Translations under genes and position numbers: made by a program
Part shown: piece after piece, positions 9,203-10,819 of the stretch
Numbering within the stretch: the first letter of the stretch is position 1
Layout of the letters: the number at the start of each line of letters is the position of its first letter
NCBI RefSeq assembly: GCF_031583025.1
Contig: NZ_CP134062.1
Span: forward strand, 744,001 to 808,000
DNA length: 64,000 nt
Reading direction: 5' to 3'
DNA from: Mycobacterium sp. Z3061
Lineage (GTDB): Bacteria > Actinomycetota > Actinomycetes > Mycobacteriales > Mycobacteriaceae
Notes under the pieces: generated by a model
What the model was told of the DNA's origin: nothing
The model's input: the letters and a program-made list of their open reading frames with translations, nothing else
Database searches by the model: none

Positions 9203-10819
9203 ATGGCCACGTTGTGGATGGCAGCGCCACCAGAGGTGCACTCGACGCTGCTGAGTAGCGGGCCCGGCCCTGGCGCGTGGTTGGCGGGAGCCGCAGCGTG
9301 GTCGGCGCTCAGCGTCGAATACACCGAGGTCGCCGACGAATTGCTGGCGTTGTTGGCCGCCGTTCAGGGTGGGGCCTGGGAGGGGCCGACCGCGGCGCAG
9401 TATGTCGCCGCACACCAGCCTTATCTGGCGTGGCTGACGCAGGCGGGCACCATCAGTGCGGACGCCGCCGTCCAACACGAGACCGCGGCCGCCGCCTACA
9501 CCACAGCCCTGGCGGCCATGCCGACGCTGGTCGAGTTGGCGGCCAACCACGCGATACACGGTGTGCTCGTCGCAACCAACTTCTTCGGGATCAACACCAT
9601 CCCGATCGCCCTCAACGAAGCCGACTACGCGCGGATGTGGATCCAGGCGGCCACCACCATGGCTACTTACGACGCGGTGTCGAGCGCCGCCGCTACGTCG
9701 GTTCCGGCGACTGCGCCCGCGCCCGAGATCGTGGCGACCGAAGACGACCACGGGGACGACGATCACGATCACGACGAAGACGGGGACCACGACCACGGGG
9801 ACGATCACGACCACGGGGACGGCCACGAGGACCACGACCACGGGGACCCGACCCCGCTGGACTATCTGATCGCCGACGTGTTGCGCGCGGTGACCGGCGG
9901 GCAGATCGACTGGGATCCCCTTGAGGGCACCCTGAACGGCATCCACATGCACGACATCAGCGACGCCACCCAGCCCATCTGGTGGGTCGCGCGTTCCCTG
10001 GAGTTCGGCCAGCAGTTCGAGACTTTCGTCCAGCAGCTGTTCACCAATCCCGCAGGCGCCATCGAGTACGTCGTCCAACTCGCCGAATTCGACTGGCCCA
10101 CCCACCTGGCCCAGCTCGTGCCGCTGTTGCAATCCCCGCAGTTGCTGTCCTTCGCGGTCGGCGGCGCCGTCGCGAATCTCGGCGCGGTGAGTGGCCTGGC
10201 CGGGCTGGCCGGACTCGGCGGCATACCGCCGGCGACGGTCGCGGCGGTCGTCCCACCGGTCGCTGCCGCGGCACCTGCCCTCGCCGTCGCCGGACCGGCT
10301 CCCAGCGTGGTGGCCTCAGCGGCCCCCGCCGCGCCGGCGCCGACGACGGTGACCGCGACGAGCACGGTGACCAGCGTCGGGACGGCGCCGCCCGCCGGTG
10401 GGCCCGCCGGCGGCTTCGGATTCCCCTATCTGATCGGCGGTGGGCCGGGTATCGGGTTCGGTTCCGGGATGAGCGCGAGTGCCGCTGCCAGCAGGAAGGC
10501 TTCGGAGCCCGACCTTGCCGCGGCGGCGGCTGCTGCGGAGGCACGTGAACAGGCCCGCGCGCGCCGCCGCCGGCGCACGGCGATCCGCGACCATGGCGAT
10601 GAGTTCGCCGATATGAACGTAGGCGTCGACCCCGACTGGGCAGCGCCCCCGGGATCGGCGGCGTCGGAAGCCGGTGCCGGGAGATTCGGTTTCGCCGGCA
10701 CCGTGCGTAAAGAATCAGTGGGCGATGCGGCGGGATTGACCACGCTGGCCGACGACGAGTTCGGCGGCGGGCCGAAGGCGCCGATGCTGCCCAGCACCTG
10801 GGACACAGCCGGGTCCTGA
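9203..10819 (+). CDS. PPE protein with His/Asp-rich insert (PPE3 position)
   Basis: A 538-aa PPE family protein, expected to be exported by a type VII system (probably ESX-3) as a PE partner. The N-terminal PPE domain runs to about residue 175: APPEVHS, the WEG motif at Trp59, and NFFGINTIPIALNEADYARM. Residues 180-215 use only four amino acids: 10 His, 17 Asp, 3 Glu and 6 Gly, mostly as DHDHG-type units. This is a likely divalent-metal-binding stretch. An Ala/Pro-rich region and a conserved C-terminus (FPYLIGGGPG, DPDWAAPP, FGFAGTVRKESV, MLPSTWD) of the PPW subgroup follow. ATG 9203 has AGAGGGG at good spacing. A Zur-type box is upstream. The stop overlaps an ATG of the methyltransferase frame by one base. 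Confidence 0.5.
   Translation: MATLWMAAPPEVHSTLLSSGPGPGAWLAGAAAWSALSVEYTEVADELLALLAAVQGGAWEGPTAAQYVAAHQPYLAWLTQAGTISADAAVQHETAAAAYTTALAAMPTLVELAANHAIHGVLVATNFFGINTIPIALNEADYARMWIQAATTMATYDAVSSAAATSVPATAPAPEIVATEDDHGDDDHDHDEDGDHDHGDDHDHGDGHEDHDHGDPTPLDYLIADVLRAVTGGQIDWDPLEGTLNGIHMHDISDATQPIWWVARSLEFGQQFETFVQQLFTNPAGAIEYVVQLAEFDWPTHLAQLVPLLQSPQLLSFAVGGAVANLGAVSGLAGLAGLGGIPPATVAAVVPPVAAAAPALAVAGPAPSVVASAAPAAPAPTTVTATSTVTSVGTAPPAGGPAGGFGFPYLIGGGPGIGFGSGMSASAAASRKASEPDLAAAAAAAEAREQARARRRRRTAIRDHGDEFADMNVGVDPDWAAPPGSAASEAGAGRFGFAGTVRKESVGDAAGLTTLADDEFGGGPKAPMLPSTWDTAGS

What the first reader, a model, noticed from the sequence alone, without database searches (positions are those of the whole stretch)
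9740..9847. His/Asp-only insert in an ESX-3-locus PPE protein: a candidate metal-binding secreted protein
Residues 180-215 of the PPE protein consist of 10 His, 17 Asp, 3 Glu and 6 Gly and nothing else. Such stretches usually bind Zn, Ni, Cu or Fe. The gene lies in the ESX-3 locus, which serves iron and zinc uptake, and has a Zur-type box upstream. A surface PPE that captures zinc and is made when zinc is scarce is a testable new role. The DNA also has a repeated gaccacgggg pattern, so length may vary between strains.
Basis: partly seen in the sequence, partly recalled or inferred. Interest (0 to 1): 0.7.

Follow-up and report, generated by a model that had tools for sequence, protein, structure and literature searches.

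The report
Zinc-controlled PPE with histidine-aspartate arm
A mycobacterial protein that is probably exported, and probably made when zinc is scarce, carries a 36-residue stretch of only histidine, aspartate, glutamate and glycine that may capture zinc; similar stretches arose in several lineages of one zinc-controlled protein family.

Summary
The window is from a Mycobacterium genome close to M. gordonae strain CTRI 14-8773. Nucleotides 9740-9847 encode residues 180-215 (from ATG 9203) of a PPE-PPW protein: 10 His, 17 Asp, 3 Glu, 6 Gly. By position the gene is the PPE3 (Rv0280) counterpart of the ESX-3 locus. A Zur box lies at 9139-9153; the only other match in the window is before EccA3.

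The run starts just after the PPE helical bundle. In PPE censuses of two genomes, 1 of 82 and 1 of 41 PPEs have a His-rich hinge; both carry strong Zur boxes, which only 2 of 82 and 2 of 41 have. Among relatives, His-rich hinges fall in three tree groups, with Zur boxes upstream (two are weak, 10 of 14; one truncated copy lacks its own). Many Zur-boxed relatives lack the run, so the box is the wider trait and the arm a repeated addition.

Zur control of PPE3 is already published. The His/Asp arm was not found in my literature searches. Best reading: a flexible zinc-capture arm, working like the His/Asp loops of ZnuD and ZnuA. Metal binding, secretion and any channel role are inferred. Neutral repeat expansion is the main rival.

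The parts
9139..9153 (+). Zur (FurB) box TGAAAACGATTGTCA, 50 nt before ATG 9203
   Evidence: Exact match to TGANAAYSRTTNTCA; one of 4 exact sites in the 6.79 Mb genome; 0.02 matches expected per window by shuffling; same box in relatives
9188..9194 (+). Shine-Dalgarno-like AGAGGGG for ATG 9203
   Evidence: read
9203..10819 (+). PPE-PPW protein, PPE3 type by position (the ORF is also open from GTG 9194)
   Evidence: Pfam PF00823 9.1e-60 and PF18878 9.7e-21
9215..9706 (+). PPE helical-bundle domain; closest solved structure by sequence is PPE4 (6uuj_B)
   Evidence: 231 bits, against 85 for PPE15
9740..9847 (+). His/Asp/Glu/Gly-only hinge (the insert)
10658..10801 (+). PPE-PPW C-terminal region
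   Evidence: residues 489-536 from GTG 9194
8171..9115 (+). MpaB/Lcp-type oxygenase gene upstream (synteny marker)
   Evidence: PF09995; same neighbour in relatives
10819..11784 (+). SAM-dependent methyltransferase (TIGR00027); its ATG overlaps the end of the PPE gene
11868..13325 (+). second PPE-PPW gene, Asp/Gly-rich hinge without His; the near-identical copy L031 has a best box score of only 8 of 14
13326..13340 (+). Zur box TGAAAACCATATTCA before EccA3
   Evidence: one mismatch to the pattern
13500..15413 (+). EccA3
   Evidence: TIGR03922; '3' by position
21006..21314 (+). PE protein (PE5 position), with YLAGD matching YxxxD/E
   Evidence: PF00934
21417..21710 (+). EsxG position (WXG100, slightly under Pfam's cut-off)
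21738..22028 (+). EsxH position (WXG100)

Best explanation
This is the PPE3-type gene of the ESX-3 locus. Zur represses it while zinc is plentiful; when zinc falls it is made together with ESX-3 (a box stands before each) and exported through ESX-3 with a PE partner. The His/Asp-rich hinge between the PPE helical bundle and the C-terminal PPW part is a flexible, unfolded arm that binds several zinc ions loosely outside the cytoplasm and raises their concentration at the PPE. The C-terminal part, or a partner, then passes them on. It would work like the His/Asp loops of the outer-membrane zinc transporter ZnuD and of ZnuA. Shown by sequence: the arm, its position, the Zur box, the locus, and that such arms go with Zur boxes among the PPEs examined. 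Shown by others for related genes: Zur binding to the promoter and zinc-starvation induction. Inferred: secretion, zinc binding, capture, hand-over.
For: The composition is that of known zinc-capture loops: ZnuD clusters HSHEYDDCHAD and HDDDNAHAHTH, and a His/Asp loop of ZnuA (PMC4557270 passages). Exact Zur box; with up to one mismatch the pattern has 16 sites in this genome, and four others stand at an MRF-type GTPase of the CobW kind, an AztC/ZnuA-like gene, EccA3 and a second PPE. Census: 1 of 82 PPEs (own genome) and 1 of 41 (unnamed G022) have a His-rich hinge; both have boxes of 12-13 of 14, as do only 2 of 82 and 2 of 41 PPEs (by my arithmetic, joint chance about 0.001). Three His-rich groups on the tree, all with box scores of 10 or more. 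Boxed PPEs have a median of 5 His and 11 acidic residues in 48 hinge residues, unboxed ones 0 and 5 (46 against 80). Published: Zur shifts the rv0280 promoter (PMC7863910); MAP3737, a PPE3-like gene, rises 75.65-fold with TPEN (PMC4298942); ESX-3-depleted M. tuberculosis has a growth defect in low-zinc medium (PMC3796483); PPE20, also PPE-PPW and ESX-3-linked, binds and imports Ca2+ with PE15 (PMC9731449). The PPE domain is nearest to PPE4 among solved chains.
Against: No metal binding has been measured. Many Zur-boxed relatives have no His run: 17 of 44 boxed PPEs and 23 of 27 in the further set, including the second boxed PPE of this genome. The further set by itself is not significant (Fisher p 0.29), and the independent-pairs test is uninformative (3 pairs, p 1). 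Boxed PPEs without a run are not more acidic than unboxed ones (17 against 80, p 0.15). Two of the four exact Zur sites stand by genes with no evident zinc role: an alpha/beta hydrolase and a nitrite/sulfite-reductase half-domain protein at one, and a protein without a Pfam family at the other; 9 of the 16 sites were not assigned to a gene. PPE3 is also under MntR in M. tuberculosis. The repeat DNA could grow by slippage. No structure could be predicted.
Confidence: 0.55

Rival explanations
1. The run is a neutral or merely structural low-complexity linker that grew by slippage of GAC/CAC/GGG repeats at a hinge that tolerates any length and composition; it has no metal role.
For: Tandem repeat in the DNA; 10 of 10 His codons are CAC and 14 of 17 Asp codons GAC here; a one-residue length difference from the nearest relative; the hinge is hypervariable and many boxed relatives lack the run. 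His/Asp repeat DNA is not confined to PPEs: in G022, 4 of 8 exact CAYGAYCAYGAYCAY sites lie outside the PPE.
Against: Slippage should hit all PPE hinges, yet none of the other 81 PPEs of this genome and 40 of G022 has more than 3 His. Relatives keep His and acidic residues while codons change (CAT 9 against CAC 6 in L118; mixed GAA/GAG/GAC/GAT in L036 and L114). The composition recurs in three tree groups, all with boxes.
Confidence: 0.25
2. The arm binds a different cation, or several (Mn, Ni, Cu, Fe, Ca), or serves as a buffer or pH-responsive linker rather than in zinc supply.
For: His/Asp runs bind several metals (general knowledge). PPE3 is MntR-repressed as well as Zur-repressed in M. 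tuberculosis (PMC5855569 Table 1). PPE20 of the same PPW subgroup handles Ca2+. The neighbouring PPE has an Asp/Gly-rich hinge without His.
Against: The regulator box found is Zur, and in the set examined His enrichment goes with that box. Pure Ca2+ binding would not call for His.
Confidence: 0.15

Closest known systems
PPE3 (Rv0280) of the ESX-3 locus
   Same: Beside the methyltransferase and upstream of EccA3 (M. tuberculosis order recalled); Zur control reported for ppe3/rv0280
   Different: I had no named M. tuberculosis sequence to compare, so whether Rv0280 has a His run was not tested; the arm is not mentioned in the passages seen
MAP3737, zinc-responsive PPE of M. avium subsp. paratuberculosis
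   Same: PPE3-like (63.9% similarity to Rv0280 in the paper), predicted Zur box, 75.65-fold up on zinc starvation
   Different: sits in a zinc island away from ESX-3 core genes; hinge not examined here
PE15/PPE20 calcium importer
   Same: PPE-PPW subgroup, ESX-3-linked, binds and moves a divalent cation across the mycomembrane (passages)
   Different: calcium, not zinc; no His run is mentioned in the passages seen
ZnuD (Neisseria) and ZnuA loops
   Same: flexible loops rich in His and Asp that sample and capture zinc (passages)
   Different: beta-barrel TonB-dependent receptor and periplasmic binding protein; no homology to PPE claimed
PPE4 in solved structures 6uuj and 6vhr
   Same: PPE domain aligned over residues 5-179, 231 bits
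   Different: the chain ends just before the hinge, so the arm is not covered

Membership tests
PPE family, PPE-PPW subgroup | N-terminal PPE domain and PPW C-terminal region | tested here: met
   PF00823 201.9 bits, PF18878 74 bits, both above cut-off
PPE3 (Rv0280) orthologue | Next to the TIGR00027 methyltransferase, upstream of EccA3 (feature recalled) | tested here: met
   recurs in relatives
PPE3 (Rv0280) orthologue | Direct sequence comparison with a named Rv0280 | not tested
   no named M. tuberculosis record was among the loci fetched
Zur regulon | Zur box in the promoter region | tested here: met
Zur regulon | Derepression when zinc is scarce or zur is absent | not testable with these tools
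   published for related genes only
ESX-3 substrates | PPE domain of the ESX-3 type (PPE4-like) | tested here: met
   PPE4 231 bits, PPE15 84.7, PPE41 70.1 or less
ESX-3 substrates | EspG3- and EccC3-dependent export with a PE partner | not testable with these tools
   the PE at 21006-21314 has a YxxxD/E motif; partnership unknown
His-rich zinc-capture loops (works like ZnuD/ZnuA) | loop dominated by His and Asp/Glu | tested here: met
   30 of 36 residues are H, D or E; flexibility inferred from composition, no model
His-rich zinc-capture loops (works like ZnuD/ZnuA) | measured zinc binding | not testable with these tools
   needs a binding assay

The most novel reading that the evidence does not exclude
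Zur-controlled PPE-PPW proteins are the zinc ports of the mycobacterial outer membrane, as PPE20 is for calcium, and the His/Asp hinge is their substrate-capture arm. Several lineages sharpened it independently, so hinge composition could be read as the metal preference of a PE/PPE transporter.
Probability: 0.27. Interest if true: 0.85.

Novelty: new variant of a known kind. Interest (0 to 1): 0.6.

Why it matters
How zinc crosses the mycobacterial outer membrane is open as far as I know; a 2013 paper states that zinc uptake systems had not been identified in mycobacteria (PMC3796483 passages), and no function of PPE3 was stated in the passages I saw. A PPE that carries a zinc-binding arm and is switched by the zinc regulator would link the Zur regulon, ESX-3 and PE/PPE nutrient transport in one testable molecule. 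The arm is short and separable, so the hypothesis is easy to test.

Tried and rejected
Rejected: chance composition; that the run is common in PPE hinges; that the box is a chance match.

Tried, negative or inconclusive: (1) EsxH here has Gln at residue 70, where an M. bovis BCG study mutated His70 together with H14 and H76; I asked whether its loss goes with His-rich PPE3. It does not: 27 of 30 loci examined have H14, Q70, H76, one (G060) has R70, two gave no hit to my motif; G030 had no match. (2) Independent-pairs test for His run and box: 3 pairs, p 1. (3) The further set from rows (40 regions plus L296-L297): 3 loci gave no PPE motif (L319, L335, L338), 1 row repeated an earlier protein, 39 were counted: His and box 4, His without box 0, box without His 23, neither 12, p 0.29. 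(4) pacL1-ctpC-like neighbours in one genome only. (5) Boxed PPEs without a run are not more acidic (17 against 80, p 0.15). (6) A first tree run with a mixture model did not finish; the tree is a quick LG+G4 tree of 72 rows with 20 open forks, and the box was scored there at 10 or more. (7) NCBIfam gave no family for this PPE.

Rows dropped: own-genome census 87 matches, 5 fragments under 400 nt dropped, 82 counted, one with only 34 nt of hinge and two with short upstream DNA; 149 PPEs found, 129 distinct of at least 250 aa counted; 2 are partial repeats (L116, L142), leaving 127: His and box 27, His with score 10 2, box without His 17, neither 81. The sample leans to PPE3 relatives, and one of the six scan peptides came from the His run. 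Of loci L031-L140, three had a PPE that my motif missed (L040, L056, L064); L040 is His-rich and has a box of 12. The truncated His-rich copy of L137 fell under the length limit.

Literature searches for the arm; none of the listings or passages I saw describes a His-rich PPE hinge. The library holds open-licence papers only, and most listed papers were seen as listings alone. The primary Zur-regulon paper (PMC1797298) is not held.

Full report
What is there. The window lies in a 6.79 Mb single-contig genome. Its PPE is nearest to that of Mycobacterium gordonae strain CTRI 14-8773 (100% in the best segment; 99% overall), and a same-species genome, G006, is in the set; M. gordonae DSM 44160 is farther (66%), so the species name is loose. 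Nucleotides 9740-9847 encode 36 residues of only Asp (17), His (10), Gly (6) and Glu (3), residues 180-215 from ATG 9203. They lie between the PPE domain (P0001 residues 8-171) and the PPW C-terminal region (489-536). The first of them is the fourth residue after the end of the match to the solved PPE4 chain.

Locus. Upstream is an MpaB/Lcp-type oxygenase. Downstream, with overlapping ends, is a TIGR00027 methyltransferase, then a second PPE-PPW gene, EccA, EccB, EccC, a PE gene and two WXG100 genes. The oxygenase - PPE - methyltransferase order recurs in relatives. In M. tuberculosis the PPE beside this methyltransferase is PPE3/Rv0280 (gene order recalled); Zur and MntR repression of ppe3 is from Table 1 of PMC5855569. 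I had no named M. tuberculosis sequence to align.

Zur box. TGAAAACGATTGTCA at 9139-9153 is one of 4 exact matches in the genome to TGANAAYSRTTNTCA; with one mismatch allowed there are 16 sites. The window holds two of these, this and one before EccA3, against 0.02 expected. Other sites stand just before an MRF-type GTPase of the CobW kind, at the start of an AztC/ZnuA-like gene, and before a second PPE at 3567726-3568211. Two exact sites stand by genes without an evident zinc role, and 9 sites were not assigned to a gene. So the pattern picks out some zinc genes but is not proof of Zur control.

Is the run special? Of 82 PPE domains analysed in this genome, only this hinge has more than 3 His in any 30 residues; it has 9, one has 3, and 80 have 0 or 1. 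Only 2 of 82 have a box of 12 or more of 14 positions; 7 more score 10 or 11, none of them His-rich. The G022 protein is on a different branch of the PPE tree from the window protein.

Relatives. Among PPEs taken by similarity, 127 remain after dropping two partial repeats: 27 His-rich with a box of 11 or more, 2 His-rich with a score of 10 (L126, L128), 17 with a box but no run, 81 with neither (a biased sample). M. intermedium (L040), missed by my motif, is His-rich with a box of 12. On a tree built without the hinge, His-rich rows fall into three groups: the M. gordonae/M. asiaticum type; a second type found both at ESX-3 (G110, G031) and elsewhere (for example M. fragae, L048); and a third (L072, L204, L211). 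The run changes state 5 times and the box, at 10 or more, 6 times. A further set of 39 gave 4 His-rich PPEs, all boxed and all of the second type by their hinge, and 23 boxed without a run; by itself it is not significant (p 0.29). So the box is the wider and probably older trait, and the run a repeated addition. One copy without its own box was met, the truncated PPE of L137, which follows a boxed PE5 - PPE - EsxG series on the same strand.

Selection or slippage? The DNA is repetitive and the length differs by one residue from the nearest relative, so slippage probably contributes. But relatives mix CAC with CAT and GAC/GAT with GAA/GAG while keeping His and acidic residues, and the other PPE hinges of the two censused genomes show no such runs. 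I read this as repeat growth kept by selection on composition, with a neutral origin as the chief rival.

Function. Published passages I saw: Zur binds the rv0280 promoter in gel shifts (PMC7863910); a PPE3-like gene of M. avium subsp. paratuberculosis rises 75.65-fold when zinc is chelated (PMC4298942, section 8 part 1); ESX-3 depletion harms growth in low zinc (PMC3796483); PPE20, a PPE-PPW protein tied to ESX-3, binds Ca2+ and with PE15 imports it (PMC9731449); ZnuD captures zinc with flexible loops of His and Asp/Glu (PMC4557270). From this I infer a zinc-capture arm on a zinc-starvation PPE. Steps shown by sequence: arm, place, box, locus, distribution. Steps shown for related genes by others: zinc response. 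Steps inferred: export, zinc binding, capture and transfer. No structure could be made.

Novelty. PPE3 and its Zur control are known. The His/Asp arm and its recurrence within Zur-boxed PPEs did not turn up in my searches of an open-licence library. I call it a new variant of a known kind.

Noticed in passing
window 21314-21417 and 11868-13325: No PPE gene lies between the PE gene and EsxG, where PPE4 is expected (M. tuberculosis order recalled); instead a PPE-PPW with an Asp/Gly-rich hinge sits before EccA3. It may be the moved PPE4 counterpart.
   Followed up: partly
window 13326-13500: Between the Zur box and EccA3 there are TTAGCTTAGGGAATGCTAA and GAGGCTAACCTCA stretches that resemble IdeR boxes (motif recalled).
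   Followed up: no
window 21738-22028: EsxH has Gln at residue 70, a position mutated with H14 and H76 in an M. bovis BCG study of its zinc site; Q70 is usual (27 of 30 loci examined) and unrelated to the His run.
   Followed up: yes
   Followed up: no
L298 5986-7491 (plasmid pMAH135, M. avium): A PPE3-like gene on a mobilizable plasmid with a Zur-like box (12 of 14) about 360 nt upstream; its hinge has two Cys (CGTRTDPWTGETETVYC), and L041 and L053 have a similar stretch.
   Followed up: partly
   Followed up: partly
L036 4188-7623 (M. gordonae DSM 44160): Two tandem PPE3-type genes, each with its own Zur box and its own, different His-rich hinge.
   Followed up: partly
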